Source: Platerodrilus igneus (taxonomy: Eukaryota > Arthropoda > Insecta > Coleoptera > Lycidae). Taken from it: a DNA stretch of 64,000 bases. A program made the translations under genes and the position numbers. Each line of letters starts with the position of its first letter. Position 1 is the stretch's first letter. The stretch covers positions 1,798,001 through 1,862,000 of the forward strand of contig JARFIW010001088.1 of assembly GCA_036346225.1 (NCBI GenBank), in the 5' to 3' direction. Shown in pieces: positions 32,647 to 52,567 of the stretch. The notes beneath the pieces were generated by a model, which was not told the origin of the DNA, made no database searches, and worked only from the letters and a program-made list of their open reading frames with translations.

Positions 32647-32652
32647 ATCACC
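32647..32652. repeat. Maverick target duplication, left
   Basis: ATCACC immediately outside the left terminal repeat; identical to 51,274-51,279. Confidence 0.95.
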
Positions 32653-33440: not shown

Positions 33441-33648
33441 ATGCAAATTATACCATCTTGCATCACGATTTATTTGACTTTTAAATAAAAATTAATTTAA
33501 TCTTATATCAAGGATGTCTTGCTTACATTTTAGCAATTTGAATATATTTAAATATTTAAATGTAATTATACATTTAATTTATGTGGCAATAAAAATTCTT
33601 TTACTTTTAGCGGTTTGGTGATTGAATGTAGATGACGCATTAGACATT

Positions 33649-33820
33649 GTATATATATATAACTCGTTTAATTTCACCATTATTTGAACCTGCGTTTTTG
33701 AAGTGCTCAGTATACGTGCAGCGTTAGTATAAAAAGTAAGTTACATTTTTCTTTATTTGTAAAAGAATATTTTACTTTATAATATTTGCAAGTTTGTAAC
33801 AGCATTGCTGTTGTTTGTAG
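33649..33820 (+). promoter_or_regulatory. Promoter and 5'-UTR intron of the first Maverick gene
   Basis: A TATATATATATAA box lies at about 33,649-33,663. A consensus donor (GTAAGT from 33,736) and a pyrimidine-rich TTTGTAG acceptor ending at 33,820 fit a leader intron that would place the ATG directly after the splice. Predicted from sequence only. Confidence 0.45.
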
Positions 33821-34087
33821 ATGGATCAAGTAATACAAAACAATAATAAACAGTCCGTTGTAGGCCCTAGAAAAGAGGCAAAGAGGTTAGCCGAATTGCC
33901 ACTAAACGTTCCACAAAGAATCTACAGAGCAAGAATAGTACATTCCAAATATGGTGATTGTGTACTGATTGAGTTAGCGGACAATATTTCATTTCTACCA
34001 CAACGCAACACGGAATTGTGGAGAAAAACATTGAGGAATTGGGTTCTGGAAAATACGCAAAACCGTATTAGAACTAATAGATATTAA
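33821..34087 (+). CDS. Small Maverick protein, possibly OB-fold ssDNA-binding
   Basis: Intact 88-codon gene starting at ATG 33,821. After a basic N-terminal segment comes a beta-rich core (YRARIVHSKYGDCVLIEL, then NISFLPQR), a pattern seen in small OB-fold-like proteins that many Mavericks encode near the polymerase. A replication accessory role (single-strand binding) would suit its place upstream of PolB. The assignment is by general pattern, not by a decisive motif. It is one of the few core-side genes without a break. Confidence 0.55.
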   Translation: MDQVIQNNNKQSVVGPRKEAKRLAELPLNVPQRIYRARIVHSKYGDCVLIELADNISFLPQRNTELWRKTLRNWVLENTQNRIRTNRY

Positions 34088-34178
34088 AAGACCCAATCAT
34101 CTTGTTTCCTACAGAATAGAACACATTTAGAAAAAAAAAATAATTGGTATGTTTTATAATTATTGCTTGTTTTGAATA

Positions 34179-34424
34179 ATGACTGAACATATTAATACTT
34201 TAAGTAGCGAAATTGTTTTTAAAGTTAATAACGCATGCAATATTTTATTTAAAAGGTATACAATTAAAGAAGCTGAAATTTTGTTAAAATATATCAAACG
34301 ATACTTAAGGTTATTTGTAAAGGCGGTTAGACATGGCGACTTAAATTTAGGTCAGTTAAGGCAAATTCAAACCAATATGGGATTGTTAAAAGCATCCAAT
34401 CATCAATTAAAAATTTTCATGTAG
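34179..34424 (+). CDS. Hypothetical Maverick protein, or detached PolB N-terminus
   Basis: ATG at 34,179, 81 codons, mainly alpha-helical and basic (ILLKYIKRYLRLFVKAVRHG). No family recognised. It ends at a stop exactly where an adjacent frame opens into the N-terminal region of PolB. It could therefore be either a separate helical protein or the first part of the polymerase gene cut off by a frameshift. Confidence 0.4.
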   Translation: MTEHINTLSSEIVFKVNNACNILFKRYTIKEAEILLKYIKRYLRLFVKAVRHGDLNLGQLRQIQTNMGLLKASNHQLKIFM

Positions 34425-37400
34425 GAAGCGGCATTCAATCGGTTTCACAACCATCACGTTTGGGGGTCAAATGGATTGATTTGGTTTCCGCTTTTGCAAG
34501 AAGAATTAGAACAGGCGTTATAATAAACATGCATCATAAGGACTTAATGGCATTTTTAATGATTGCTTTAAGGTAATTAAAATTAAAATAAAAATAGTTT
34601 AAAAAATTAAATTTAATAAAATTAATATTACACTTTGCGGAGAATTCATTAAAACATCTAATATTGATGAAAATAATATAACGGATTTTAAACATTTTAA
34701 TACGAAAAATGTGGCGATTGACGTAGCGACGGATTTAACATCATGGTTTCGTGATGATGTGGTTGATAAACTAAGAACAAAACTATCGGAGTTTCAGGAA
34801 TCAAAATCAGGCTGGGCTTTGAAAAAATTGTATCGATGGAAGTTAATATTAATAAATACGAAATGGGCAATGGACGTGTTTCATCTTTTATTCCGCTTCC
34901 AAAGCAAATTTCAAATAAATATGCATGCATCAACGTGAAAAATTCAGATGAGTGTTGCTTTTTTTGGGCAATTGTTTCAGCATTATTTCCTCTAAAATAA
35001 GAAGTAATCTCACATCCTCATATCCACACTACAGATTAGTTTTGAATGTTGAAGGATTGGAAATGCCGATGTCGATTAAAAATATTTCAAAATTTGAAAA
35101 TATGAATAAAATTTCCATAAATGTATACAGTTTAGAATTAAATTGCGCTAAAGAAAAATCGTTCTATAGTGTGGTGCCAACAAGGCTTACTATGCAGAAA
35201 GCTGAGAAGCATGTAAATTTACTCATAATTCAAAATCAATATTTTCCAAACGTAAACAATTATAATACTCCAAGTGAGGATTTTGAAAATGTTGAAATAA
35301 AATACCATTATGTTTGGATAAAAGTTTATCGCGGCTTATTGGCAGTCAACTAAATAAACATAATCATAAAAAATATATTTGCGATCGTTGTCTGAATTAC
35401 TTTAACACCCTCGATAAATTAAATGATCACTCTAAATATTGCGAACAAGTAAATATCTGTAGAATTTCATATCCTAGGCATCGTCATGTTGAATTTAAGA
35501 ATTATGTTTATAAGCAAAAAGTACCTTTTATAATTTATTCCGATTTTGAGACTATTTTAAAACCTGTTAAAAATCATAGTTATCAAAATATTCCAAGCAC
35601 TTTAAAGTATCAACATCATAAAGCTTTTAGTGCTGGTTATTATTTAAAATGTGACTATGATGAATCGTTATCATTTTTTAAAAATTATTTGGGGGAAGAT
35701 TGTATAGATTGGTTTGCAAACGAAATGGTGGAAGTTGCAAAATTTGTTCGAAGTAAATTCAAACATATTGAACCAATGATTGAACCTCATAATAACATTA
35801 TTGCAACACATTGCTCTATATGTGAAAATGCATTTTCTGAAAACGCTATCATCGTTAGAGACCACTGCCACTTTACTGGCAACTTCAGAGGTTTTGCACA
35901 CCAACATTGTAACCTCAACTTTAGAAATAGTTTTGTTGTACCGGTTGTGTTTCATAATATGAGTGGATACGATTCCCATTTCATGATACGAGAATTATCA
36001 AAAAAGGGTAATATTAGTTTATTGCCATTAAACAAAGAGAAATACATTTCATTTACTCTGAACGATCTAGATGCTGATGATGATGGTGATGCTAAGATAA
36101 AGTTTCGTTTCATTGATTCTTTGAGATTTTTAAATTCATCTTTAGACAGTTTAGTGGCCACATTGCAACCTTCAGATTTCAAATATTTATCAAAGAATTT
36201 TCAAATGTCTGTTCAAATAAATTGAACTTATTAACAAGAAAAGGTGTATTTCCATACGACTACATTGATTCATTGTCTAAACTGGATGAATTTGAACTTC
36301 CAAAAATTGAAAACTTCTATAGCATGTTGACTGGTGAACATGTCACTGAGGATATGTATAACCATGCTCTAAAAGTTTGGAATGCATTTCAAATAAAAAA
36401 CATTTCGGAGTATGCCTTACTTTATATGAAAACCGATATAATGTTGTTAACGTGTGTTTTTGAACAATTTCCGGAAAAGTCGTTTGCCACATATGGGCTC
36501 GATCCTGCTTGGTACTTCACCTTACCAGGGTATGCTTGGGATTGCATGCTTAAGCATACAAAATATAAGTTAGAGTTGCTTATGGACATTGATAAAATTA
36601 TGTTTATTGAAAACGCTATTAGAGGTGGTATTAGTCAGGTGAGCAACCGATATTCCGAAGCTAACAATAGATACATGCATAATTATGATGCATCTAAACA
36701 ATCCAAATATCTTTTATATTTGGATGCTAACAATCTTACGGGTGGGCAATGTCGCAAGCATTACCATACGGAGACTTTGAATGGGTTGACATTAATCTCG
36801 ATATTATTTCAATTCCAGATGATGCTCCAGATGGATATATTTTGGAGGTTGATTTGGAGTATCCTGAATATTTACATGATTTACACCGCGATATGCCGTT
36901 TTGTGCAGAACATCAGATCCCTCCAGGATCAAAATTGCCTAAATTAATGACCACCTTATCCAATAAAACTAAGTACATTTTACATTACAGGAATCTTAAA
37001 CAGGCGTTGTTAAACGGACTTAAATTGACAAAAATCCATCGAGTTCTAAAATTTAAACAAAGTTGTTGGTTAAAACCCTATATTGATTTGAATACTGAGC
37101 TTCGGAAACTTGCAAAGAATGAGTTCGAGAAAATTTATTCAAATTAATGAACAATGCGGTATTTGGAAAAACAATGGAAAATATTCGAAAGCACCGTGTT
37201 GTAAAGCTAGTTAAACGTTGGGAGGGCCGTTATGGAGCAAAAATTGGATGGCAAGCCCCATGTTTCATAGTTACACAATTTTCGATGATGAGTTAATGGC
37301 TATTGAGCTAAACAAAACCGAATTAATCTTTAATAAACCATTATATGTTGGTATGTCCATATTAGATATTTCTAAAATTTGTATGTACAATTTTCACTAC

Positions 37401-37969
37401 AATTTTATGCTTCCAATCATGAAGGTGGAAAATTGCAAGCTCATGTATAGCGATACCGATTCGTTTATTTATGAGTTAACTTGTGACGATGTATATAACG
37501 AACTTATTAAGTCAAATCTCTCAAAGTTTGACACTTCTGGGTATGATGTAAATAATCGCTATGGAATACCTCGGGTTAACAACAAAGCTTTGGGGCTCAT
37601 GAAGGATGAAACAAACGGTGTAATAATAACACATTTTGCTGGGTTACGATCGAAAATGTATAGTTACAAGTTGGAATGCAATCCAAATGAGAAGGAAAAT
37701 AAAACACGTAATCATGGTGTTATAAAAATCCAAAGGTATCAAATATAATGTAGTAAAAATGAAATAACTTTTGAAGACTATGTTTCATGTTTAAAAGATT
37801 TTAAAGAAAAGAAACTTAAGCAAGCCACGTTCCGTTCCTACGCTCATGATGTATTTACAATAATTCAGGAAAAATTGCATTAAGTCCATATGATGATAAA
37901 CGTAGTCTAATACCACATTCACATGATACATTACCGTGGGGACATTATAGTATCGCGATGATGGAATAA
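34425..37969 (+). pseudogene. Protein-primed family B DNA polymerase (PolB), frameshifted
   Basis: Spans about 1,180 codons, the usual length for Maverick PolB, which copies the element using a protein primer. Landmarks in order: N-terminal RIRTGVIINMHHKD; C2H2-like CDRCLNYFNTLDKL (35,380); exonuclease motif SDFET (Asp 35,542, Glu 35,548); a Cys/His endonuclease-VII-like CSIC...VRDHCHFTGNFRG (35,815-35,890); polymerase motif A LDANNL (Asp 36,723); motif B NNAVFGK (about 37,150); motif C YSDTDS (Asp 37,452 and 37,458). Frame changes near 34,570, 34,835, 34,980, 35,330, 36,220, 36,745, 37,145, 37,240, 37,745 and 37,870 break it. Stops arise almost only through these shifts; the catalytic residues themselves remain. 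Not functional as written. Confidence 0.95.
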
Positions 37970-38068
37970 ATATATTTTTTAGAAGTTTAAAACAAGCAAT
38001 TATTAAGAAAAACTTACTAAATATTTTATTTGTTTTACAGATAACCGCTTCCCATTATAGTTAACAGT

Positions 38069-38877
38069 ATGGATGTTGAACAATTAGTAGAAAATCAAAA
38101 AGAAATTGAAGTGCCTAGTTTACTGACAATTAGCATAAAAACAATACTGAATCAAATTGGGTTAACCAACCAGAGTCATATTGGTATGTTAAAATCAATA
38201 CTTCCAAAAACAGTATACAAAGACATAAAAGAACCGTTATTGGAATGTTTAATAGTGCAGATATTTATGAAGTTAACCTCAAATTTCTTAAGTCTGTGCT
38301 ACTACAAAATGATTTTGAAAAGCATGCGTCGAAGTATTTGGAGAAGTTGGTCAACTGCCACAACGATCCAACTAGAATCAATATAATGTATATAAAAGAA
38401 CACATCAATCCAATAATGTATTCCAATTTTCTGGCAGAATACCTATACATATTTGAGGAAATTGGATGGGATCATTTTTTGGCTACTGTTTTAACAACAG
38501 GTGAAGAGGACATACTTCATAAGTGGGATTTTACAAAACCTTTGTCTGAAGAGCAATACATGTGTTTAATGTATATTCCAACAAATCGCATGCCTCAATT
38601 TGCAGAGCGATACAATCGTGTAGTTGTACATTCTTGGGAAAAATTAAGTACTATCACAGCTTCTACTGAGAGTTATTCATGTTGCAAGGAATGTATGAGA
38701 GGTGTTAAGGGTGTAATTAAAAATACAAAATTTATGGTATTTGAAGATGCTTGTATAGTACCAGATCTTATATGGAACATGAGTTATTGGTGTTGCAGAT
38801 GTGAAAGAATGCCTTTATTTCAAGTAATCGATGAGTCAGAATATTATACTCATATTGATTATATTACACAAGTTTAA
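38069..38877 (+). pseudogene. Maverick accessory protein with Cys pairs, one frameshift
   Basis: ATG at 38,069; the first frame runs to 38,386 and the better continuation runs in another frame to 38,877, with the change near 38,250. About 270 codons in all. The C-terminal third has two cysteine clusters, SCCKECMRG and YWCCRCERMPLF, that could bind zinc. Family not recognised. It lies just downstream of PolB on the same strand, after an acceptor-like TTTGTTTTACAG (ending at 38,040), so the leader may be spliced. Confidence 0.5.
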
Positions 38878-38966
38878 ATGTTGTATAATGGATTGCGGTT
38901 GTTGTATATGTAATAATAGAAATAAAAAATGTTTTTCTCAATTTGTATATTATTGAACTGAATACA

Positions 38967-39697
38967 CTATTTTAAATCATTCAAATCGCATAAAATTCTA
39001 TCATAATAGTAAAAGATGCATTGCTTTAGACCAATACACAAACTGCATAAACTGCATAAATTATTAAAAGTCTCCAAAGTCTGAAACATGCAATATTCAT
39101 CATTATTAGAATAATTTTTCACTAAATCTAAAACATTTCTATAGTATGCATAAAAGTTCATTTCTTTTAAGAGGTTTACTTGATCAACCACTATACATTG
39201 ATTTGCTTCCAAAATCTGAACTACATCATTTTCACAAAGCATATATTCAACATCATGTTTAGTAAGTTTTAAAACTTTTCATCATTGTATACGACTTGTT
39301 GTAACTTGCACGTGTCAATGATTGAATCATCGTCATTACCATTGCCATCCAATGGTTGTTGCATAGTAAAGAAGTTAACTTTGTTATTAAGCAATTCCAT
39401 AAGGTGATTCCACTCAACATCGCTTAAACTAATTTTATTGTTACCATCATCATTTAAGTAGCTATGTCGATTTAAATCAATTGCAGGTGTAAACTGTCGA
39501 GCTGGAGATAAACCTACTTTGATGTTATAGTATGAGAGTGGAAATGTGGTTTGTAGCAGTAAATAATGTTCACTTTTGCTAGCATGTTCAACTTTATCTA
39601 GATATTGATTGATTGCAGCATCATAATCAACATCTTCGGATGATGATGATACATCAAAATCATAATAATCACTTTCAACACTACTTTCTTCAACCAT
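38967..39697 (-). pseudogene. Acidic Maverick protein, possible PC4-like domain, one frameshift
   Basis: On the minus strand ATG 39,697 opens an acidic Ser/Asp/Tyr-rich N-terminus (SSVESDYYDFDVSSSSEDVD), then a core with ARQFTPAIDLNRHSYL and KISLSDVEWNHLMELL. The last piece resembles the end of PC4/p15 transcription-coactivator domains (ISL...W..L). Near 39,275 the frame changes and the next frame continues (LTKHDVEYMLCENDV...) to a stop at 38,967. Together this is about 240 residues. A single-strand-binding or transcription role is plausible, but the similarity is weak. Confidence 0.4.
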
Positions 39698-39726
39698 GAT
39701 TGCAAAGACCTTTTGCGATACTGAAA

Positions 39727-40675
39727 TCACGTGAGAAAAATGTTCATTATATTTTTTGGAAACCCCACTTCCCCGCCATTACAAATTGGATTTTTTATCC
39801 ATGAATTGTGAGAATTATCAAACCCCAACCATTTTACAAATAGACGATCTCCTTTTGGCGTAACACTTTTCAACAAGAAAAACATCAGGATGTGAGGTTT
39901 TCTGCAGTTCTTCTGCATAAAATTGCCCCAAAATCGGTTCACCTTTGTAATCTTGAAGTAGATAGGTAGCAGGATTGCCAACTACTATTTTAACAATTTT
40001 AAAGATTTCTGTGGAATAATTTGGCATGTAACCTTTGGGAAAATCAGACTTATATTTCGAAATTCGAACATGGTCGCCAACTTTAAGTTTTATCACCCCA
40101 TTACTTTCAAGGCATTAAACTGTGGTAAATATGTGAATTCGGTGACATCTTTAGGCTTCATTTTAATTTTCGAATGTTTTTGTTATTATACTGTTGAGTA
40201 ATATTAGGCAATGCATCCAACCATTTACATTTACGTCTAAGGCTAAATTGTTTGAATAATTCATTCTTTAACGTTCTAATTACTCGTATAACTATGGCAG
40301 CCTTTTTGTACTGAATGTAGAGTAATGATTAATGTTATGCATCTTCATTAATTTTTCATATCTGCTGTTGTAAAATTCTTTACCATTATCGGTTTGTAAA
40401 TTATCAGGCACACGACCTTCGTTAAAAATGGATGTCATTGCCCGGCAAACATCAATTGCATTTTTTGATTTTAAAGGACGTGTCCATAGATATTTTGAAT
40501 AACAATCTATCACCACTAACACATACCTATAATTGGCATTTTCCTTAAAATATTGATCAAATTCGATAAAGTCGGCTTGCCAGAGATCGTCTCTGTGTTT
40601 AATAATGGTACGTTTTCTAGGAAAATTTTTTCTGGCTGCTTTATACAATTCTTCAACAACGGTAAGCTTTGACAT
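39727..40675 (-). pseudogene. Maverick integrase (DDE, chromodomain-like tail), frameshifted
   Basis: Start at ATG 40,675 (MSKLTVVEELYKAARKNFPR). The RNase H-like core has WQADFIEF (Asp35) and NLQTDNGKEF (Asp96), the first two catalytic acids of a retroviral-type integrase. A frame change near 40,310 follows. In the frame that continues, the stretch before IRTLKN has Ile where the third catalytic residue (Glu) is expected. The C-terminal SH3-like part (KVGDHVRISKYKSDFPKGYM, 40,085-39,820) lies in another frame, and the end has a chromodomain-like VKWLGF...HNSWI (39,850-39,780). It would have joined the element ends to target DNA with 6-bp staggers. Inactive here. Confidence 0.9.
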
Positions 40676-40763
40676 TATAAGGAAAGTGCACAATACTGGG
40701 TAACTATTATTTTTTCTCTTGATGTGCAATCGACAGTCGAAACCGTTGACATCAATAATAATA

Positions 40764-41110
40764 CTAACGATTAGAACCTTGCAACGTTGGAGATGACAAA
40801 GCTGGTGTTGTAGTTAGTGAGATTGACGAGGTTATAGAGGTTGATGCTGGTGAAGTTGTTATTGTCGAGATCGGTGATGTTGTTGAAGTTGATGTTGTTT
40901 GCACATTACACTTTTCCTCAATTGTATTCAGCAGCTGTTTGTGTAAATTACTAATACAGGTATCCACGTATCGCTTATTGGCAGCATCATAATCAGCTTG
41001 TGGTTCTATAACATTACAAAGTTTTTGTATTGCATATCATATTGATCATCAAATGTATAATGAAGCCGATATTTTGTGGATGAATGTGTACCAAACTTAT
41101 CGATACTCAT
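40764..41110 (-). pseudogene. Small Maverick protein with phage-fibre-like motif and Ser/Thr-rich tail
   Basis: ATG at 41,110 (MSIDKFGTHSSTKYRL), a frame change near 41,030, then DYDAANKRYVD, a helical segment (ISNLHKQLLNTIEEK) and a Thr/Ser/Pro-rich tail to 40,764. The (T/Y)DA(A/V)NK(R/K)YVD phrase is common in phage tail-fibre and related virion proteins, where it precedes trimeric coiled coils. A virion-surface role is possible, by inference only. Confidence 0.45.
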
Positions 41111-41124
41111 CTTTCAAAATGCTA

Positions 41125-41998
41125 TTATGCAATGATCCCTTCTTCTCTGAGCTCTTCTTCAATACTAATTATTTCATTATTGTGACCAGTATGACCTGCC
41201 GATTTTGATGCGTGTAACAATCTAAGTCGCTCAACTAGTTCGTGAGGTGTGTTCCAGTCACATACTCCTTTGTTTTAGCGTTGACTTCTTTCAACAGACC
41301 ATATCCTACTGGTGCATCTAGTATTGGTTTAATAATTTTGATGTACTTATACGATCTGGAGCCAATAATTTTGTTTTGAGGATCATAGTTCCGTTTAAGA
41401 GCGTTAGTAGCTTCTAAAATCTTTCTGTACTCCTTTTGATCATTCTTGGTATACTTTTCAGGTTTTTAAGTATTAAAAGTTCATATAATCCTGGAGTGCC
41501 TTTATAAGTTTTACCATTTATAACTAAATCAGCTGATTTAGGTGTTATGGTAACTAAAGCATTTCCCATACTCCAGTGATCTGTACTAGCATCGTATCGG
41601 AGGGCACTATGACCATAATCGATTTCATCTTCTGAATTTTGAATGATTAGTTCTATATATTTTCTAGGTAAAGGATGCTCATATCGCTCTAGAAATTCAC
41701 CAGTAACAACATGATCATCATCATCATCATCATCATCCTTTACTTCAACTTTAGGCAAAATGCCAAGAGCAGCAACATCAGCAGAACTATCTGCAACTGC
41801 CAACTTTGATTTCAATTTATGGTTAACAGATGCATATTTTTTGTTTTAGCAATCTGCAGTAATGGTTCAATTATTGGTTTATATGCTGTTTCAACCATTC
41901 GCTGAGTATCAAGTTCACCCTCTTAAGAGCTTTAAGTTTACGATTAATTGAACGTCTAGTTTTCGTTAATCTTTCTTTAATCGTTCTATCAGTGACAT
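41125..41998 (-). pseudogene. Conserved Maverick protein of unknown function, frameshifted
   Basis: ATG at 41,998 starts a basic helical N-terminus (RTIKERLTKTRRSINRKLKA). A poly-Asp run follows (encoded at about 41,715-41,740), then FLERYEHPLPRKYIELI, YGHSALRYD, HWSMGNALVTI and a YKGTPGLYELL motif (to 41,480). In a further frame come KNDQKEYRKILEATNALKRN and VERLRLLHASKSAGHTG (41,440-41,160). I recognise this GT-GLYELL / ILEATNA arrangement as recurring in animal Mavericks next to the ATPase. Its function is not known to me. Breaks near 41,430, 41,820-41,930 and 41,260. Confidence 0.6.
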
Positions 41999-42055
41999 CC
42001 ATCTTGTTGGCTTGCAGAGTAGAAACTGAGCTGCAGTAAAGTGGTTATAGAAAGT

Positions 42056-42731
42056 TTATATTGTTATATAACAATCAAATCCCTTTCGATATCGTCCATA
42101 ATTAAAGTCTTTTGCAATGCATAGAAAATCATATTTTTCCAGCCAACATCGCGAGCACATTAATTTAAAATGATCAAAAGTCATATCGGTACCAACATGT
42201 TCATCATATATGTGTTTTAAATTTAAATGATCTTGTTTAAATAGGACAACTATGTTAACATTATCACGTATTAATTGTTTTGGTACTTTAGAATACGTTT
42301 GACACAGATAAAATGAATCTACACCCGAATGTCGACCCCTGCTAAAATATTCGCGAATTATATCCTGATTTAAGCATGAAATATCGTCAAATATCATTAT
42401 CGTATTTTTACTGATTGCTTCTGGAGGGGTGACATTCTCTTTATCGCTATAGGCGTAGTACTTAATGCCCTTTATAGATTTAAAAGTTGCTCTAAATATT
42501 TGTATTTAGCTTGTTCCAATGATTTGGAATACACGCCACATTTTCAAACCTTAATCCGTGTGGTGCCTCCAATAAACTAATCATTACATTGGTCTTTCCA
42601 CATCCTGATGGTCCGCATATTATCGCCCTGATTGATGTTGGAAATAAAGGTCCATGCTTTCCCACGACTTCAGATTTTAAAAAATTATGATCGTCTATAC
42701 TTAATTGTTGAGGCTGCCGTATAAACTTCAT
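42056..42731 (-). pseudogene. FtsK/HerA-type genome-packaging ATPase, frameshifted
   Basis: ATG at 42,731. The Walker A motif GPSGCGKTN occupies residues 40-47 (42,614-42,594), followed by the LLEAPHGLRFENV region. A second frame (42,397-42,056) begins with the Walker B MIFDDI, then the arginine-rich YFSRGRHSGVDSFYLCQTYS stretch typical of adenovirus/Maverick packaging ATPases. The frame changes between 42,490 and 42,400. It would pump DNA into the capsid. About 225 residues, normal for Mavericks. Confidence 0.9.
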
Positions 42732-42766
42732 ATTAAGTCGAATGTTTTAATAATACTAATCAGTTG

Positions 42767-43130
42767 ATGGCTAAACGTTGTAAAGGAAGGGGTGTTCTAA
42801 ACACCTTGATAAACAAATTACCGGTAGAGCTTCATGTACCGGGATACCAATTTTGTGGGCCAGGCACCAAGTTACAAGAACGATTAGTACGAGGTGATTC
42901 CGGCATTAACGATCTAGATAGATTGTGTCGCGATCACGATATTGCTTATGCTCAAAACCCTGACGACTTGACCGCACGACACAGAGCTGATAAAGTTCTA
43001 GCAGAAGGCGCTTGGAACCGAGTGAAATCGAACAACGCTCAGTTTGGAGAAAGCAGCCGCTTGGGCCGTAACCAATGCAATGAAAATTAAAACCAAACTG
43101 GGTATGGGGTTACATCAAGAAGGATAAAGA
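42767..43130 (+). pseudogene. Phospholipase A2-domain virion protein
   Basis: ATG at 42,767, head-to-head with the ATPase gene (36 bp apart). The PLA2 core resembles the parvovirus VP1 unique region: the calcium loop FCGPGT at residues 29-34 and the catalytic HD..Y (His57-Asp58, Tyr61) preceded by GINDLDRLCRD. In parvoviruses this lipase lets particles escape endosomes. Adintovirus-like Mavericks carry related domains. The catalytic residues are present and continuous. After about residue 95 the frame appears shifted, and the protein probably once continued into the next segment. Confidence 0.85.
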
Positions 43131-43159
43131 GGAAGAAAAGAGACAGTGTTGTTCATTTA

Positions 43160-43560
43160 AAGGGGCATATTGACACCAATTAGAACTGCTGTAAAGCATA
43201 TTGTCAAAGATTCAAATGTGAAGAAATTTATCAATATGAGTTTACTTGCTGCAAGAAAAGCAGTTAAAACCGCAGGTGGAAAAAAGAGTGCGATTTCCTC
43301 GAATTATTCCCATACCCAAAGCAGGAGGCTTTCTTCCATTTCTAGTGCCACTATTTGCAGGTCTTTCAGCTGCAGGAGCACTAGCTGGCGGTGTTGCAGG
43401 GGTCGCTAAAGCTGTCAACGATGCTTCGGCAGCTAAAAACAATTGGAGGAAAATCAACGTCATAATGTCACCTTAGAGGATATAGCTTTAGGTAAAAAGG
43501 TGAAGGGTTATATCTTTCATCGCGCAATAAAAAGGATTTGCCTTATACTTAAAACCCAAT
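43160..43560 (+). pseudogene. Adenovirus pX/pVI-like hydrophobic core protein
   Basis: Fragments in shifting frames. A basic part (AVKHIVKDSNVKKFINMSLL) is followed by PRIIPIPKAGGFLPFLVPLF and a Gly/Ala-rich hydrophobic helix (FAGLSAAGALAGGVAGVAKA), then a polar tail starting KNNWRKINVIM or LEENQRHNVTLEDIALGKK. This Pro-Gly-hydrophobic-Gly-Ala arrangement is characteristic of small membrane-active core proteins in adintovirus-like Mavericks. It may be the C-terminal half of the PLA2 protein. Frame changes near 43,290 and 43,440-43,500. Confidence 0.65.
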
Positions 43561-43921
43561 CGAAAAAACTTGTAAACTTGCCACGTAGAGCACTATTTGA
43601 TTCAGATCTAAAGAAATATGCTAAAGGTTTACCTTTCTTTAGAGGAGTATTTATGCGTGATGCACTGCCAGCAAAGCCTCATGTTAACGAATCTGCTATT
43701 GTAAACTTAGATGACAACGTTGGAAATGGAACGCACTGGGTTGCATACAAAAACGTGGCAAGAAAGTTATTTACTATGATAGTTTTGGAGATTTAACACC
43801 ACCGCTTGAAATAGTGAGATACTTAAGAGACTGTAATCTTACTTATAATTACAATCGGGAGCAAAATTTTAATACCTCAATATGTGGACATTTATGTTTG
43901 AACTTCTTATACAATAAATAA
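43560..43921 (+). pseudogene. Adenain-like maturation protease, frameshifted
   Basis: Begins around LPRRALFDSDLKKYAKGLPF. His of the catalytic triad in NGTHWVAY (43,734). A frame change near 43,760. The acidic residue in YYDSFGDL (43,778). The nucleophile region CGHLCLNFLYNK (Cys codons 43,883 and 43,895), ending at 43,921. This order His-Asp-Cys is that of adenovirus protease (Ulp1-like clan), which cleaves capsid precursors. Spacing and residues are preserved apart from the shift. Confidence 0.88.
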
Positions 43922-43955
43922 TTTTATGGTATATAGTTGTTTGATTTTAAATTTA

Positions 43956-44807
43956 ATGGTAGTCATGACACAAACGTTTACGTTGACAGGTGTGGAAACG
44001 TGCTTTCTGCCAACTATTTCCTCCAATTGAACTTGATTCAGAATATAAATATGGGTTAGGTTTGGTGGGGTTTTACGGATGCAACTCTATACGCAATATT
44101 CATGCAGGTAATAACAAGTTTTATTATTTGGATGATAAAAGGATAATAATAATAATGTTATTGATAACGATGATGATAATAATGCTAAAATAAAATGATT
44201 ACAATTCCACCTGGAGCATATGAAATTTCTGAACTTGGAAAATATATAAACAATGCAATAGATAGCCCCCAAGTAGTGCATTGAAGTTTATTCTAAAGGC
44301 TAACAATAACACATTGCAATGCGAAATGAAATCCATGTACACAGTGATTTTTAAACGCAATGATGCTATTGGTCAAATGCTTGGGTTCACTCCTGGCACA
44401 TATCAGGCAAATAAAAATCATTTCTCTCAACAATCAGTACAAATATTTGATGCGACCAATATACATGTGGAGTGTAATCTTACTGGTGGAGCGTATAGGA
44501 ATAGCGAGCAGTCACATACAATTTTGAATTTGATGTACACGTAGAGCCTGGATATAAATTAATTAAAGAACCTGTATCCATCACATACTTGCCTGTGATC
44601 GTTCAACAAATAGATAACATTACGCTACGGTTGGTCAATCAAGAGGGTAAATTGGTGGACTTTGGTGCAGAGAAAGTATCTATTAGATTAGAACTTAAAA
44701 ATATGGGGCTTAATATTTTTGGTGCTAGAGTATACTCAATCAGTTCACCTCAACCTGCAGGTCAGCAAACACCTGGTGCATTAACAGATCAGGACGTTCA
44801 ATTTTAG
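43956..44807 (+). pseudogene. Minor capsid protein (penton-like single jelly roll), frameshifted
   Basis: ATG at 43,956 or 43,965 leads into TQTFTLTG. Landmarks: FPPIELDSEYKYGLGLVGFY (44,018-44,080), NKFYYLDD, IPPGAYEISELGKYI (44,190-44,260), NNNTLQCEMKS, GQMLGFTPGTYQ (44,365-44,410), HVECNLTGGAYRNSEQSH and VNQEGKLVDFGAEKVSIRLE (44,630-44,700). These are conserved beta-strand regions of Maverick minor capsid proteins that occupy capsid vertices. Breaks near 44,000, 44,165, 44,270 and 44,540. It lies between protease and major capsid, the usual synteny. Confidence 0.85.
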
Positions 44808-44837
44808 AATATCTCGGTTATAAAGTGCTTAATAAAC

Positions 44838-46047
44838 ATGGAAGGCGCAATAAGAGGGCTATTCAACAGTGTAGCGTCCGAAGATACGATTACAGAATAT
44901 GATCGTCGAACATATCACCCATATACGACAAACGCCTATGGAAACTCGGATGAAATCAATATTGTTATCCAAAAGCTGATCTTATGACTGCAACTTATGA
45001 CAGCATTATATACTTGGAAGGTACTCTTAGTCCAACAGAAGCTCAAATTAAGGATTATGCTTTCACGAATAATGCCATGTTGTTTCTTTTGAAGAAATTA
45101 GATTTACGCTGGGTGATCAGGTTATCGAAACGGTTAGATTGCCCGGAATTAACAGCACAATCAAAGGCGTTTGTTCGTATACACGCGAGCAAAGTCGTTG
45201 TATGATGCATGCAGGATGGAGTGTGGAAAATAAACCCTTACCTTTGCTTAATGAAGCTAAAGATTCTTTTGCGCTTCAATACCATTAAAGCACGTGCTTG
45301 GATTTGCCGAAGGATACAAAACACCGTTGCTCAACGTTCGACAAGAATTAACGTTGGTACGTTCAAAGTCTGATATTGATTGTTGTAAGGGTACTTCTAT
45401 ACCAAAAATTACTCTCACAAAAGTAGTATGGAAAGTACCACACGTAATGCTCAACGATGCCACAAAATTGTCTATTTACAAAGAAATTAACAAAATTCGC
45501 GAATACAAGTAGCTTTTCATGCACGTGACTTGTATACCTATCCAAGCCTACCGTCCACTACATCTTTGGTTTGGCCTGTTAAGAGTAGTACGGGTTTTCA
45601 GCGCCCTCAATGGATATTCATCACCTTTCAAACCAAAAAGCGCAACCATAAGGATGCAGATGCGTCTACATTTAATCATGCAAACGCTACAAATATAAAG
45701 GCTAATATCAACAATAGAAGATACCCGTATGAGCAGCAAAACCTTTCTTTTACCGACAACAAGTACATGGATGCTTATAATGAATATTTGAATTATCGAT
45801 CTCAATATTATGAACCGTTCGAGAGTTCGGTATGTTCTCTTCTCAGTTATGAGGAGTTTAAACAGCAGCCAATTTTTGTAATCAACTGCACCAGACAAAA
45901 TGAAAGCATCCATAATATAGTAGCAGATTTAAAATTGAAATTGAAGCATCAAAAGCATTTGAAGTTGAAACTGTTGCTTACTGCATGATTATGCATGACG
46001 TACTTATTGAATATGAACCATTTACTGGCATTATACGTAAACTTTAA
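44838..46047 (+). pseudogene. Major capsid protein (double jelly roll), frameshifted
   Basis: ATG at 44,838 (MEGAIRGLFNSVASEDTITE). Landmarks: DSIIYLEGTLSP (44,999-45,035), FTNNAMLFLLKKL, NVRQELTLVRSKSDID (45,330-45,380), KVVWKVPHVMLNDATKL, YTYPSLPSTTSLVWPVKSST (45,533-45,592), YPYEQQNLSF (45,728) and an HDVLIEYEPF end near 46,000, stop 46,045. About 400 residues, typical for Maverick major capsid. Breaks near 44,970, 45,090, 45,270, 45,515 and 45,940. Evidence that this lineage was virion-forming. Confidence 0.88.
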
Positions 46048-46060
46048 AATCGTTATTTCT

Positions 46061-46068
46061 TATAAAAG
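46061..46068 (+). promoter_or_regulatory. TATA box of the metalloproteinase gene
   Basis: TATAAAAG, 68 bp before the ATG at 46,136 and 14 bp after the end of the capsid gene; a fitting core promoter distance for a separately transcribed cargo gene. Sequence-based prediction. Confidence 0.5.
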
Positions 46069-46135
46069 ATGATTGAAATACATATGTAATATATTATTTA
46101 AATAACAGTGTTTTGTTAGTATATTATTGATAGTC

Positions 46136-47772
46136 ATGGAGGTTGTTGCTGTTCCACTCGCAGTGCTTTTAATCTTCCTTAATTTCCCCATCGGCAGGGA
46201 AGTGAGGTGTGAAGATGAAATTTACACAAACAGTGAATTTGGCTTAGAAATGGCAAACGTTTATCTAAACAAATATGGATATATTGAAACTCATAATGTT
46301 AGTGGGGCCTCTATTGAAAATCGCAAATCGATAATTAAAATGCCTTAAAAGCATTTCAAACATATTACCAACTGCCGGTTGATGGTGAACTAAATAAAGA
46401 AACTTTAAAGTTAATGTCAAAACCTAGATGTACAAATAAAGACAATATTTCTGAAGCATACAATGTACATCAAACCAAATTGACAAAGCGTGTTTTAAAT
46501 TACACAGTATTAACGAATGATTTTCGCATCTTAGCTCGGACGGTTGAAGCATTTAAAGTTTGGGCAAAACACACAAATCTTGTATTTATATACAATCCAC
46601 AGAGTTATGATATATTAATAACATTCCAACAACAAAATCATTACATGAGGGCTTCAACAAACCCTAATGAGCGGTGTAAGGATGATTTTGATGGACCTGG
46701 TGGTGGGTTAGCACATGCTTTCTTTCCATCCAGCGACGATGTTGTGTCTGAAATACACATGGATTATGATGAGTCTTGGTATATGGAACACTCAAATTCA
46801 CCACCCAGTGGATATATAAGTTATTATGAGGTGCTACTTCATGAAATTGGTCATACATTAGGGTTAAGACATTCAAATAATGTTAATGCAGTTATGTATT
46901 CATATTTAGAAAATCATCATCTTGATTTACATGAGGATGATATTGCAGGAATACAGTCCCTGTACCCACCACCATCATCAGCATCTACCACCGTTAAATC
47001 AACTACCGCTGCTTTTAAACCTAACTCCCCCAATAAGCCGACCTCACCGAACAAACTACCGCCAGACCTATGTAACATTGAAATTGAACATTTTCTAATT
47101 CTAAATAAACGCATATATATGTTTTATGAAAAATGGGTTTGGATATCAGCTCTAAATAGCACTTACATTGAACCGGCTAAGAACATAATAGATTGGCTAC
47201 CTTTTCTTCCACACACGTTTAAACGTTTAGATGCCGTATATCAGAAACCAAATGGTGATGTGGTTTTCTTTAGCAACAATCAAGTATATCTGTTGCAATT
47301 TCCTAGCATGCAGCTAGTCAATGGATGGCCTAGAGCATACACTCACTTTTACATTCCTAATCGTGTTCGGGTCAATGCGGCTGTAAATACCTATACTGGA
47401 CGTACATTGATATTTTATGGCGAAAATCAACTCATGGAATACGATGAATGTACTAAGCAACCCAAAGCACATTTTTACAATCACATGCATTTCCAGATAT
47501 TCCTTCGCATATTACAACCATTTTCGATATACCAATGGTCATCTATATTTTATCAATAAAACAAATTTCACGAATATAGTGAATTTCTAGGCAAAGTAGT
47601 TCAATCTGGCCACTTTGATCTATCCATATTTAACATTTATTGTGCAAACAAAGGATTAATGCAACAACTTTACGATGTATTGACAAAGTTATTAAAATTG
47701 GACAAACTAGTGAATTCGTACTTACAATCTAGCAGTATGTATGATAATTATGATGATGAAAGTTTATCGTAA
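46136..47772 (+). pseudogene. Matrix metalloproteinase with hemopexin domain (cargo gene)
   Basis: ATG 46,136 begins a signal peptide (MEVVAVPLAVLLIFLNFPIG), then a peptidoglycan-binding-like prodomain (YLNKYGYIE, FQTYYQLPVDGELNKETL). The cysteine switch is PRCTNKD (Cys 46,429). The catalytic domain has a GGGLAHAFFP calcium/zinc region, the zinc site HEIGHTLGLRH (46,840-46,872) and Met-turn AVMYSYL. A Thr/Pro/Ser-rich hinge (PNSPNKPTSPNKLPP) leads to a hemopexin propeller (DLCNIE; DAVYQKPNGDVVFF; AAVNTYTGRTLIFYG). Frame changes lie near 46,345 (prodomain), 47,485 and 47,570, with the tail read to 47,772. The core 46,414-47,559 is one uninterrupted 381-codon frame. Mammalian-type full domain order suggests capture from an animal host. 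It would be secreted and degrade extracellular matrix. MMPs also occur in baculoviruses and relatives. Confidence 0.93.
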
Positions 47773-47824
47773 TGTTAAAAATGTACAAAATATAATAAAA
47801 AATTAATTTTAGTTCATTTTATTT

Positions 47825-48637
47825 TTACATCACATAAAAATTTATTTGGAAAAGCAACAATAATTTCATATAAAACTTAAATTCTAAAGAATGTTGAATA
47901 AAGTAGCTGGTTCTTGATAATTTCGTAAGTGCTTGCATATTTTCCGCAACCAATTTACCTGTAGATATAATACAATCATCGTTGATTGCACCACACTGTT
48001 TGGTAAAAGAGGACGCTATGTTATCTATAAATTGATTATAGATGTAATCAATTGAAGAATCATTAATTGTAAATAAACAATCGTTAACTATGAATGCCAT
48101 TGAAAATAATTTATTAATTGCTTCCTCAGAAAACACGAGCGTAGCACTACCATTATGACTTATTCCAATATATGGAAAGTTGCTGCAGATATCGTAAATG
48201 GCATGCAGCTTTATTCCATAACCAATGGATATTTCTTGATCTCTATATTCAGGTTCCTTTTGTAGAATTAGCATATTACGAAGGAAATGTTCGCTTCTTA
48301 AACTTGAAATTTCATTCCATTCCTTAACATTAAAACATAGAAAGCTTTGTGGAGCAATAACATTAGATATTTGCACTACTGCATTTAGTTCATACCGCGT
48401 TGAAATACCAACTTCCAGTAATAAACCCAATTCCACATGTAAAAATGTTGACCATGTTGATACTAATTCCTCGCGATACTTATTAAATGCTGTAGGACGT
48501 GTTGATTTTAGTGATAATTCTGCGTTTGCATCAGCCCATGAAAAATTTGCATTATCATTTTGAATTGCATCGACCGATAAACAATTTGCATTACCACCAT
48601 TCTTATTCAAGTTTTTATTAACTGTTGCAGCATACAT
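47825..48637 (-). CDS. Unknown Maverick protein, 270 residues, intact
   Basis: Uninterrupted frame from ATG 48,637 to 47,825. No signal peptide or membrane segment. It has an Asn-rich start (NKNLNKNGGNANCLSVDAIQ) and mixed alpha/beta character, with motifs EELVSTWSTFLHVELGLLLE and SIGYGIKLHAIYDICSNFPY. I do not recognise the family. It is convergent with the metalloproteinase gene (52 bp apart) and follows the 180-residue-class gene on the same strand (58 bp gap). Being unbroken while the core genes are shifted could reflect chance or selection. Confidence 0.6.
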   Translation of the reverse strand: MYAATVNKNLNKNGGNANCLSVDAIQNDNANFSWADANAELSLKSTRPTAFNKYREELVSTWSTFLHVELGLLLEVGISTRYELNAVVQISNVIAPQSFLCFNVKEWNEISSLRSEHFLRNMLILQKEPEYRDQEISIGYGIKLHAIYDICSNFPYIGISHNGSATLVFSEEAINKLFSMAFIVNDCLFTINDSSIDYIYNQFIDNIASSFTKQCGAINDDCIISTGKLVAENMQALTKLSRTSYFIQHSLEFKFYMKLLLLFQINFYVM

Positions 48638-48695
48638 GTTTCTACTTTGAACGCAAAACTCTAACTATTTACGATGGTGGATTTTACCGGTTGAA

Positions 48696-49205
48696 TTATT
48701 GACTATAATTATTCATCCAATACTTCAGTACAATCGCATTTTCCGCTGCACAACTGAATGATGTGCAATGTCTTGCGTGATATGAACATTTTGAAGTGTT
48801 GGGGCAATTCCACTCCTTTAACTCTTGTAAAGAAGGTGGACACCCCAAAGCTTCAACATTGATGATGTTGAGGTTAGAAAATTCGGACATTACCCATGCC
48901 CGTTTTTCTAACCCCTTTACATATACATTCGTCGCTTCATTTAATATTGGACTTAATACATGTTGCAAGCATCCATAGGGCAACTCACCACACTCCCACT
49001 TAATACCATGAAAATGTTCTATTAGCCATGCATTTTGACGTTTATGGTCTAGCAATAATTCACCCCATGGATGCGGTGGTTTTAGTATGTAAGTACTTAC
49101 ATCATTTGATGATGCCAATAATGGAACAATAGCGACTTCTTTATATATGAACTTATTGTTTACAGTTTTGAACCCTTGAACATCTAACACTATTGAAGTA
49201 TTCAT
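48696..49205 (-). CDS. Maverick accessory protein, exonuclease/RNase H-like pattern, intact
   Basis: ATG at 49,205 gives 169 residues without a break. Pattern: SIVLDVQGFKTVNNKFIYKE, then KPPHPWGELLLDHKRQNAWL, HFHGIKWECGELPY, NVYVKGLEKRAWV, then CPPSLQELKEW and Cys/His residues SKCSYHARHC. A buried acidic strand (VLDVQ), a central HG.KW and a VYVKG strand recall DEDD-type RNase H-fold exonucleases, and similar proteins occur in arthropod transposons, but the catalytic acids are not all evident. Function unassigned. A TATA box lies 65 bp upstream. Confidence 0.55.
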   Translation of the reverse strand: MNTSIVLDVQGFKTVNNKFIYKEVAIVPLLASSNDVSTYILKPPHPWGELLLDHKRQNAWLIEHFHGIKWECGELPYGCLQHVLSPILNEATNVYVKGLEKRAWVMSEFSNLNIINVEALGCPPSLQELKEWNCPNTSKCSYHARHCTSFSCAAENAIVLKYWMNNYSQ

Positions 49206-49269
49206 TTTGCAATATTGACGCTGGCTGTTCAATAACAAACAGAAACTAACATCTTAACTCAATGTCTCC

Positions 49270-49281
49270 ATATATATATAT
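49270..49281 (-). promoter_or_regulatory. TATA box for the minus-strand gene pair
   Basis: TATATATATATG-type run about 65-75 bp upstream of the ATG at 49,205 on the minus strand. It could drive both minus-strand genes. Confidence 0.4.
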
Positions 49282-49795
49282 GCTTTGCAACAAGATTCCC
49301 CACATAGAAACGACGTGATTACTTTAAATTTATGCGATTGTATAATTATATACAATCCCATTATATTTAATGTATGCATTAAAACATTCCAATGTGGTTA
49401 TAAAATTATTCACGTTTTGTAGAAAACCATTAAAATTTACATTTTAATCTCATTGCAACTTTGTAACCTTGATGCTAATGAACGCTATTATTAACTTCTA
49501 TTGTTTGAGAATGACGCAAAGAAAGAATACCTGATGCTACACCTTGAATTATAAAAGTTAATACATGTAAATTCTTCAAAATTAGTATGCTAAATACAGT
49601 GTTGATGTTTCATCATGACCAAATAACTACATCAATTGAATATATATCAAACAGGATTCTGAATAGTACACGGTTGATGTGGATATAAAATTATTCATGG
49701 TTTTAGCAATAAAAATTTAAAATATAACCTTGCTTATAAGTTTATTACATTTCTAAGTATATATAATACAGTAAATTTAACCATTAACTAACAAA
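49282..49795. other. Intergenic Maverick stretch with diverged direct repeats
   Basis: No gene. The phrases (A/G)ATGTGG(T/A)TATAAAATTATTCA and the following ...AACCTTG... recur at about 49,392 and 49,677, and GATGCTACACC(T/C)TGA(A/G)TT recurs at about 49,533 and 50,246. The AT-rich TATATATAA at about 49,760-49,768 is a likely promoter for the next gene. Confidence 0.45.
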
Positions 49796-50146
49796 ATGAA
49801 ACCAACTGCAATTATATCGCCAACAAATAGAACTGGGGTGCCCTGGTTCGCAAAGCCGACAGTGAAGCGTCAAATGCTTAGACTCTTAAACCCGTAAGTA
49901 ACAAATATTTATTTGTATAAACTAATTTTCAATTTATATTTACTACTGAAAAAATTGTTATATAATAAAACTTAGGTTTATTTTTCTTATTGTTACAGTA
50001 ATATGCGATATACGGAGGTGGCAGACCGACATACGCCAGCACAAATGTCACCACCACCACCACAACCACCACAACCATGGTCCCCAGATGATGGCGAAGA
50101 TTTACTTACTTTGCTAAATGAATTTATAGAAAGAAGTATTCATTAA
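49796..50146 (+). CDS. Small spliced Maverick gene, intact
   Basis: Two exons, 49,796-49,893 and 49,999-50,146, joined across a 105-bp intron with GTAAGT donor and TTGTTACAG acceptor; the frame is kept and encodes 81 residues. The N-terminus is basic (FAKPTVKRQMLRLLNP). A polyproline stretch (MSPPPPQPPQPWSP) follows, then an acidic amphipathic end (DDGEDLLTLLNEFIERSIH). Proline-rich plus acidic hydrophobic helix is reminiscent of transcription-activation or host-factor-binding modules of small DNA viruses, but no known family or LxCxE motif is seen. It sits just inside the right terminal repeat, where early genes often lie. It is unbroken. Confidence 0.65.
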
Positions 50147-50340
50147 ATAAATATTAAAGAAACACATATTTTCTAAATGATATTGGTGCTAAGGAAAGCT
50201 ATTATTATTAAGTTATATAGTTTGAGAGTGATGTTAAAACCTTGATGCTACACCCTGAGTTGTAAAGTTAATCCATAAGCAAGAAATCCTTGATAATAGC
50301 AAGTTCAGTGTACTTGTATAAATTATTTTGGGATGATGTA

Positions 50341-51273
50341 ACCAAAAGGATATACGACATACCTGCCTTGAAATGTTTTTGCAAACACACACACACCTTA
50401 TGTTAATTAAATACATTATATTAAAAGTCGAATGTCGGTGCGATTTACATATATATTACCAGAGATTTATAATTCCAAACACGTTGTTATATTCGACTGC
50501 ATGCAGATTCTTAGTATTTTATCGTGACATTGAAATTGGAGAAGTGAACGACTTCTTTTTACAAGATTTTACCTGCAGACGTTTAAAAATTTGACCTCCA
50601 TCATATAACCATAGATTTATAATTCCAAACACGTTGTTATATTCGACTGCATGCAAATTCTTAGTATTTTATCGCGACATTGAAATTGCGAGATGTGAAC
50701 GACTTCTTTTACAAGATTTTACCTGCAAACGTTTAAAATTTGACCTCCATCATATAACATTTCGTATATTTTCTCAATTTTATTTGCTACTTCGTACAAA
50801 ACGCAGCTTATGAGGAGAGCTAAAACACTCTTTATCACTTGCACGCGTTTGCCTAATATTAAAAATTCTTCACAGCGGCGTTTTAATTTTTAGCTTAACC
50901 TACCCCAGAAAATACGAACCAACACGTGAACTCCATTTTCTACACACACAACATTTTTTAAAATTTAATATTTAATATTTAACGTCGGGAACGCTGCTAA
51001 AAAATTTCCTAAGAAAATATCTCCACCCAGCGCACGCGCACCACCCCACAACAAAAATCTAACGACCCCGCCGAACGCACACCCCAAAGACCTAACGACC
51101 CCACGACGCAACAAATTTACACACAAAGACAATTTTGTTCTCAAAGCGGCGTATACATATCTTGCTGCACGTTTTGTTTCCCAAAGCGGCTTAGCTGTTC
51201 ATATTGTTCTCGAACCGGCGTATACATATCTTGCTGTGGATCTCTGTTGCCAAACCGGCTTAGCTACCCTACT
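50341..51273 (-). repeat. Maverick right terminal inverted repeat
   Basis: About 933 bp. It is longer than the left repeat because a 150-bp unit is present twice in tandem (50,463-50,612 and 50,613-50,760), but once in the left repeat. Confidence 0.9.
50463..50760 (-). repeat. 150-bp tandem duplication in the right terminal repeat
   Basis: Two copies with about 95% identity (start AGATTTATAATTCCAAACAC at 50,463 and 50,613). The left terminal repeat has only one. Frames reading through it are not genes. Confidence 0.85.
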
Positions 51274-51279
51274 ATCACC
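51274..51279. repeat. Maverick target duplication, right
   Basis: ATCACC immediately outside the right terminal repeat. Confidence 0.95.
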
Positions 51280-51890: not shown

Positions 51891-52200
51891 CGATACGGGA
51901 TTTTGCGTATCGAATATCGATACATATTCTATATCGATATGTATCGATATATCGAATATCGATACGTATCGATACGTATCGATGCGTATCGATATGTATC
52001 GATGCGTATCGGTGCGTATCGATACATATCGATGCGTATCGATACGTATCGATGCGTATCGATGCATATCGATACGTAGCGGTATGTATAGATATATATA
52101 GCGATTTGTATCGGAACGCTTAGACGTGTAGATTAAGTATACATATCGAGACGTAGCGATACCTATCGGCACGAATCGATACGCATCTATAAATTTTTCT
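51891..52200. repeat. TCGATA-array element, copy 1
   Basis: Begins GGGGTGGGCGATACGGGATT after TA and runs into dozens of units of the 10-bp palindromic pattern GTATCGATAC. The right end lacks the mirrored terminus seen in copy 2. Frames of Tyr-Arg-Ile-Asp repeats on both strands are artefacts. Confidence 0.8.
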
Positions 52201-52340: not shown

Positions 52341-52567
52341 GGGTGGGCGATACGGGATTTTGCGTATCGAATATCGATACATATTCTATACCGAATATCG
52401 ATACGTATCGATACGTATCGATACATATCGATACATATCGATACGTATCGATACATATCGATACATATCGAGTATCGATATATCGATATTTATTTTTTGC
52501 TGTATCGGGGGGGTCGATACGGGTGTCGTATCGATACGTATCGATATATCGATACGCCGACCCAGCC
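52341..52567. repeat. TCGATA-array element, copy 2, with inverted ends
   Basis: Starts GGGGTGGGCGATACGG and ends CGATACGCCGACCCAGCCC, both flanked by TA. So the ATCGATAC minisatellite is carried inside a small transposon-like unit with GGGNTGGGCGATA inverted ends. Confidence 0.75.

What the first reader, a model, noticed from the sequence alone, without database searches (positions are those of the whole stretch)
46136..47772. A matrix metalloproteinase captured by a Maverick/Polinton
The gene lies inside the terminal repeats, between the major capsid gene and two unknown genes. Seen directly: signal peptide, prodomain with a PRC cysteine switch, HEIGHTLGLRH zinc site, Met-turn, Pro/Thr-rich hinge and hemopexin blades, with 381 codons uninterrupted through the catalytic core. 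Established: Maverick core genes do not include an MMP, while some insect DNA viruses carry MMPs and nematode Mavericks have been reported to carry protease cargo. Inference: the element took the gene from an animal host and used it for spread through tissue or basement membrane, making it a virus-like element with a tissue-remodelling effector.
Basis: partly seen in the sequence, partly recalled or inferred. Interest (0 to 1): 0.88.

Follow-up and report, generated by a model that had tools for sequence, protein, structure and literature searches.

The report
Tissue-digesting enzyme gene in insect Maverick
A virus-like jumping element, present in over a hundred copies in what is probably a beetle genome, carries a gene for a secreted matrix-digesting protease that selection has kept working, which suggests that such elements behave like real viruses that must get through host tissue.

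Summary
Window 32653-51273 is a Maverick/Polinton (AGTAGGG...CCCTACT ends, ~680-bp near-identical inverted repeats, 6-bp target duplication). Between its capsid gene and two orphan genes lies an intronless animal-type matrix metalloproteinase (MMP) gene, 46136-47772. Its frame is broken in this copy, probably by assembly indels; copies with an open frame exist.

It is a standing gene of the family: all 46 distinct places fetched by MMP or Peptidase_M10 match have the capsid gene beside it, and 97 of the first 100 capsid matches have at least the MMP start (truncated in four). Six of six further copies with both ends in view have different target duplications.

It is under selection: among 68 copies, private changes look neutral (ratio ~1.0), changes shared by three or more copies look purified (~0.4; 0.2 without four ragged copies). 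Wrong-frame controls do not show this; the capsid gene does.

The host's own MMP exons are only 31-34% identical. Nearest relatives are two firefly proteins (51-54%) in an insect clade with Cys near the usual structural-zinc Asp position and an extra C-terminal helix. Tissue penetration is inferred. Whether other clade members are Maverick-borne is untested. My searches found no earlier report.

The parts
32647..32652 (.). left target-site duplication ATCACC
51274..51279 (.). right target-site duplication ATCACC
32653..51273 (.). whole Maverick/Polinton element, 18,621 bp
   Evidence: ends, TIRs and TSD
32653..33331 (+). left terminal inverted repeat
   Evidence: 673 of 674 aligned bases identical to the right one, 5 gaps
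50599..51273 (-). right terminal inverted repeat
35296..36222 (+). piece of the B-family DNA polymerase (frame-broken gene); YSDTDS motif (recalled as a PolB motif) in 37215-37745
   Evidence: DNA_pol_B_2 E 5.9e-6, just over its cut-off; motif read
40292..40813 (-). retrovirus-type integrase piece
   Evidence: rve E 2.7e-15
42056..42505 (-). A32-type packaging ATPase piece
   Evidence: Pox_A32 E 5.7e-5, just over its cut-off
42737..43090 (+). phospholipase A2-like domain protein
   Evidence: Phospholip_A2_4 E 9.9e-10
43437..43918 (+). possible adenain-like maturation protease, in two frames
   Evidence: weak: Peptidase_C5 E 0.038 and Peptidase_C48 E 0.083, under cut-off
44838..46047 (+). major capsid protein gene, frame-broken here (404-aa open frame in another copy)
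   Evidence: DJR-like_dom E 1.4e-30 for 45491-45988; frames; open frame
46136..47772 (+). matrix metalloproteinase gene: signal-like start, prodomain with PRC switch, catalytic domain, hinge, hemopexin domain, C-terminal helix; frame broken near 46,340 and between about 47,470 and 47,560
47828..48664 (-). orphan gene 1 (279-aa frame)
   Evidence: no Pfam match; none of 309 candidates at E <= 1e-3
48699..49253 (-). orphan gene 2 (185-aa frame)
   Evidence: no Pfam match; not searched further

Best explanation
The MMP is a standing, selected gene of a recently active Maverick/Polinton family, not chance cargo. SHOWN: it sits after the capsid gene in nearly all copies examined; copies are separate insertions with 6-bp duplications where tested; changes shared between copies spare the protein, while private changes do not. 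INFERRED: the element makes virions; the MMP is made beside the capsid protein, secreted as a latent zymogen through its signal peptide, activated when the Cys-switch prodomain is cut off, and cuts extracellular matrix (basement membrane is the likeliest target), so that particles can reach other tissues, the germ line or new hosts. The hemopexin domain and a conserved C-terminal helix may dock it on substrate, membrane or virion.
For: At least 103 scored MMP matches in the genome; capsid C-terminus beside the MMP in 50 of 50 loci, 46 distinct places; 97 of the first 100 capsid rows with at least the MMP start; 6 of 6 complete end pairs with different perfect TSDs; ratio 1.02 for private against 0.38 for changes shared by three or more of 68 copies, Fisher p 5e-6, robust to dropping ragged copies, absent in two wrong frames, same in the capsid C-terminus; full MMP domain order; MMPs in other insect DNA viruses.
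Against: No expression, protein or activity data. This copy's frame is broken; only 1 of 64 fetched copies has a frame of 530 aa or more from the first Met, though 14 of 103 rows (13 places) list an open frame of at least 540 aa. Seven of the first 100 capsid copies lack the MMP or have it cut short. Vertebrate MMPs put into a baculovirus did not raise its virulence (PMC3153225, passage), so an MMP need not help spread. Copies are not independent in the selection test; gene conversion and haplotype duplicates were not modelled.
Confidence: 0.65

Rival explanations
1. The MMP is virion-associated: it works on or in the particle (maturation, or cutting the host surface at entry), not as a free tissue-remodelling enzyme.
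For: Gene directly after the capsid gene, same strand; a C-terminal helix kept across the clade.
Against: Signal-like start, Cys-switch prodomain and hemopexin domain point to secretion; the element has its own candidate maturation protease, though weakly matched.
Confidence: 0.15
2. The MMP acts on host defence or physiology (for example cutting immune or melanization factors), or is a selfish or conflict gene like the protease cargo of nematode Mavericks.
For: Nematode Mavericks carry wosp protease cargo (PMC10680173, passage); a granulovirus MMP changed melanization when expressed from another baculovirus (PMC4192325, passage).
Against: Those proteases were not compared with this one here; full MMP architecture favours matrix substrates.
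Confidence: 0.13
3. Passive cargo: the gene hitchhikes and has no use to the element.
For: Many copies are frame-broken, and some have lost the gene.
Against: Shared changes are purified about as strictly as in the capsid gene, private ones are not.
Confidence: 0.06
4. Misassembly or a recent insertion of a host gene into one element.
For: The frame breaks in this copy.
Against: Same arrangement at 46 distinct places, six different TSDs, host MMP exons elsewhere on contig C976 and only 31-34% identical.
Confidence: 0.01

Closest known systems
MMPs of insect DNA viruses (granuloviruses, Helicoverpa zea nudivirus 2, ascoviruses, entomopoxviruses, iridescent viruses)
   Same: An MMP-type gene in an insect DNA virus; first structure matches in BFVD. 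MMP was in every betabaculovirus sequenced at the time of PMC4192325 (passage).
   Different: Structure-based matches of 16-27% identity only; carrier here is an integrating Maverick in many genomic copies. No Polinton or adintovirus protein is named among the 50 rows shown.
Nematode Mavericks with wosp protease and krma kinase cargo (Widen et al. 2023; seen through passages of PMC10680173 and PMC12941216)
   Same: A Maverick carrying a protease gene beside its virion genes.
   Different: Nematodes there, insect here; no sequence comparison was made here; here the gene is nearly fixed in the family and shows purifying selection.
Animal secreted MMPs such as MMP-1
   Same: Pro-, catalytic and hemopexin domains, PRC switch, HExxHxxGxxH, Met-turn.
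   Different: HxD of the structural zinc site (assignment recalled) absent in 24 of 24 scorable clade rows, present in 46 of 55 others; Cys nearby in 25 of 26; extra C-terminal helix; one uninterrupted exon.
Insect adintoviruses and Drosophila-associated polintons (PMC8363768, passages)
   Same: PolB, integrase, capsid, packaging ATPase.
   Different: No match for 'metallo' in that text.

Membership tests
Maverick/Polinton | long terminal inverted repeats with AG...CT ends | tested here: met
Maverick/Polinton | 6-bp target-site duplication | tested here: met
   window ATCACC, and 6 of 6 further copies with both ends in view
Maverick/Polinton | PolB, retrovirus-type integrase, packaging ATPase, double-jelly-roll capsid protein | tested here: met
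   Pfam matches over cut-off for all four, PolB and ATPase barely
Maverick/Polinton | adenain-type maturation protease | tested here: inconclusive
   E 0.038 and 0.083, under cut-off, in broken pieces
Matrix metalloproteinase (M10A) | zinc site HExxHxxGxxH with Met-turn, Peptidase_M10 domain | tested here: met
   all 26 clade rows keep H168, E169, H172 and H178, 25 of 26 the Met
Matrix metalloproteinase (M10A) | prodomain with PRC cysteine switch | tested here: met
   PRCTNKD in the window; Cys in 22 of 26 clade rows, 2 gaps, 2 other residues
Matrix metalloproteinase (M10A) | hemopexin domain | tested here: met
   Pfam under cut-off, but aligned with MMP-1 hemopexin; model matches full-length MMPs
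Matrix metalloproteinase (M10A) | structural zinc site with HxD | tested here: not met
   0 of 24 scorable clade rows, 46 of 55 others; Cys proposed as replacement. Not a defining feature of every MMP relative
Granulovirus-type viral MMP | same sequence clade as baculovirus MMPs | not tested
   no baculovirus MMP was put in the tree; only structure matches
Matrix metalloproteinase (M10A) | proteolytic activity on extracellular matrix | not testable with these tools
   needs the enzyme

The most novel reading that the evidence does not exclude
The 19-row insect clade (SH-aLRT 100, long stem; beetles, an ant, a locust and unnamed rows) is a whole lineage of virus-like MMPs that live on Mavericks: captured once long ago, rebuilt at the structural zinc site (Asp to Cys) and with a C-terminal amphipathic helix, and passed between insect orders by these elements as infectious agents.
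Probability: 0.45. Interest if true: 0.88.

Novelty: new variant of a known kind. Interest (0 to 1): 0.75.

Why it matters
Whether animal Mavericks still are viruses that move between cells and hosts is open. A secreted protease under purifying selection makes little sense for a transposon that never leaves its cell, so this is sequence evidence for an extracellular stage, and it names a protein that can be assayed. It adds an integrating element to the insect DNA viruses known to hold MMPs, and offers a family of more than 100 copies in which selection on an effector can be compared with selection on the capsid.

Tried and rejected
Viral contigs (IMG/VR): the MMP frame alone found nothing. 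The capsid piece and the capsid alignment found no relative. So no Maverick context in another species could be seen.

Contig-length fingerprint (does a neighbour's homologue lie on a contig of the same length as an MMP homologue?): orphan gene 1 had no homologue. The capsid search (15 rows at E <= 1e-20) gave only one shared length, a 70.9-Mb Photinus chromosome, which is weak.

Another MMP lineage in this genome: the query P0014 (Lamprigera) gave 126 matches; the best rows (36%) are copies of this same family and no closer match appeared (list limited to scored candidates).

Host gene as recent source: rejected. The short-exon tree (81 columns) is poorly resolved and is used only for that contrast.

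Decay as cause of the frame breaks: judged less likely than assembly indels, not excluded. The homopolymer count there (61 of 64) used a loose definition without a background rate, so I lean on the indel-to-substitution ratio and the recurrence at the same sites.

Literature: eight searches found no MMP in a Maverick. The one paper (PMC4981718) mentions a poxvirus metalloproteinase only (passages). Term searches inside PMC11071308, PMC11071296, PMC8363768 and PMC12567637 gave none. The adintovirus paper PMC8502044 is not held. One search was swamped by MMP papers and is weak evidence. Most subscription papers are not in the library.

Full report
The element. Window 32653-51273 has the marks of a Maverick/Polinton: termini AGTAGGG...CCCTACT, terminal inverted repeats of about 680 bp identical at 673 of 674 aligned bases with 5 gaps, and ATCACC on both sides as a 6-bp target duplication. 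Pfam finds DNA polymerase B, integrase, A32-type ATPase, a phospholipase A2-like domain and a double-jelly-roll capsid protein. The adenain-like protease is only a weak match under its cut-off.

The gene. 46136-47772 on the + strand encodes a full secreted-type MMP. The open 406-codon piece 46339-47556 matches Peptidase_M10 at 1.3e-34 and human proMMP-1 over residues 3-373 at 1e-31. The AlphaFold model (16-row alignment, mean pLDDT 81, pTM 0.54) has proMMP-1 as first PDB match. The signal-like start and the last part of the protein are in other frames; breaks lie near 46,340 and between about 47,470 and 47,560. Of 64 fetched copies, 22 differ from the window by at most one substitution here; together they hold 8 substitutions and 64 indels, 60 of one base, repeated at the same few sites. 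That pattern suggests sequencing error rather than decay. In one search, 14 of 103 rows (13 places) list an open frame of at least 540 aa without a stop inside the match; among the 64 fetched copies one has a frame of at least 530 aa from the first Met. So copies with the frame open exist.

Other copies. The genome (2.71 Gb, 1,723 contigs) has 103 scored matches to this MMP out of 499 candidates, and 150 scored of 234 candidates for the Pfam model, the limit of that list. All 50 loci fetched (46 distinct places, the window included; chosen by best score) have the capsid C-terminus directly upstream, and 47 of 50 have orphan gene 1 downstream. Of the first 100 of 150 capsid rows, 82 have a listed MMP 0.3-2.5 kb downstream. 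The other 18 were among 20 pieces of about 520 bp fetched; 15 of these 18 (17 of all 20) begin with the MMP, one has an internal deletion that removes it, and two lack it in the piece seen. In four of the 15 the MMP match stops after about 150-210 bases, so the gene is cut short there. In all, 97 of 100 have at least the MMP start and 93 show no truncation in what was seen. I fetched the ends of ten further copies; both ends fell inside the 400-bp pieces in six, and all six have perfect and different 6-bp duplications.

Selection. 68 copies (window plus 67, duplicate loci removed) were placed on window columns. Over 446 codons, changes found in one copy only are 289 nonsynonymous and 88 synonymous, ratio to expectation 1.02. 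Changes shared by three or more copies are 32 and 35 (0.38), by five or more 11 and 22 (0.20); Fisher p for private against three or more 5e-6. Without the four most ragged copies the figures are 1.16 and 0.23, p 1.2e-7; with the closest 57 copies 1.09 and 0.13, p 5e-5. The same columns in the two wrong frames give 1.49 and 1.95 for shared and 0.83 and 1.13 for private changes. By domain, private against shared changes give 1.59 and 0.35 (prodomain), 0.76 and 0.18 (catalytic), 2.95 and 0.33 (hinge), 1.31 and 0.17 (hemopexin), on small counts. The capsid C-terminus behaves alike: 1.06 against 0.28 in 64 copies, p 0.02. The plain reading is that inserted copies decay freely while lineages that go on copying keep the MMP about as strictly as the capsid. 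Limits: copies are related, and haplotype duplicates, gene conversion and recurrent mutation were not modelled.

Origin. The protein search gave 88 homologues at E <= 1e-5. The best are two Photinus pyralis proteins (54%, 51%); further named rows include Cylas, Cryptolaemus, Camponotus (five rows), Schistocerca, Lamprigera, Tribolium and Tenebrio. I put 64 of the 88 on a tree with the window (P0001-P0075 less eleven rows; P0076-P0088 left out). The window stands with the two Photinus rows (SH-aLRT 100) in a 19-row clade (100) on a stem of 1.1 changes per column (quick method, midpoint root). All named rows of that clade are insects. Lamprigera, like Photinus a lampyrid, does not join Photinus there, though the forks around it are weak. 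The host's own MMP exons lie on contig C976; the two catalytic exons fetched are 31-34% identical to the element and 73% to each other. So the present host's gene is not a recent source. The closest capsid protein is also from Photinus (72%). The host is therefore probably an elateroid beetle; this is inference.

Clade traits. In an alignment of the window with all 88 homologues, HxD at the structural-zinc place (assignment recalled from MMP-1) is found in 0 of 24 scorable clade rows and in 46 of 55 scorable others. Instead 25 of 26 clade rows have a Cys in the column of window residue 113, against 2 of 63 others, P0049 and P0076; 54 of the 63 others have a gap in that column, so the two measures belong together. 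That the Cys binds zinc is inference. After the last hemopexin Cys most clade tails resemble LxQLxxLLxKL. Of 13 tails measured (some near-identical), 7 have a helical moment above 95% of shuffles of the same residues, four lie at 5-7% and two do not stand out (0.10 and 0.27). The 11 host-type MMPs printed there end differently, most in hydrophobic tails.

Function. The structure search against viral proteins puts MMPs of a nudivirus, granuloviruses, ascoviruses, iridescent viruses and entomopoxviruses first. MMP was in every betabaculovirus sequenced at the time of PMC4192325 (passage). Basement membrane is described as a barrier to virus movement in PMC3153225, which also reports that vertebrate MMPs put into a baculovirus did not raise its virulence (passages). 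From domain set, gene position after the capsid and selection I infer a secreted enzyme that helps particles through tissue. This is not shown.

Print. Eight searches of the held open library gave no report of an MMP in a Maverick; most subscription papers are not held there. Nematode Mavericks with protease and kinase cargo were seen only through passages of a meeting report and a review.

Noticed in passing
window 52845-53594 (-) and 58162-58554 (+): piggyBac-type transposase piece (DDE_Tnp_1_7 E 1.1e-21); the second stretch looks by eye like a more decayed copy and was not searched.
   Followed up: no
window 51928-52112 and 52357-52493: Arrays of a 10-bp unit around ATCGATACGT just outside the right end of the element, partly in inverted orientation.
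   Followed up: no
window 50453-50538 and 50603-50688: The inner part of the right terminal repeat is duplicated (95% identical, 150 bp apart) on the right side.
   Followed up: no
window 47828-49253 (-): Two orphan genes downstream of the MMP; the first has no homologue among 309 candidates but lies beside the MMP in 47 of 50 loci.
   Followed up: partly
window 17746-18822 (+): 358-aa open frame of many C2H2-type zinc fingers, by eye.
   Followed up: no
P0049 (Oculina patagonica protein): A coral protein outside the insect clade shares the Cys in the presumed structural-zinc region.
   Followed up: no
own genome, capsid search: 6,093 first-look candidates for a 165-aa capsid piece, only 150 scored: there may be many more Mavericks, of other families too.
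   Followed up: no
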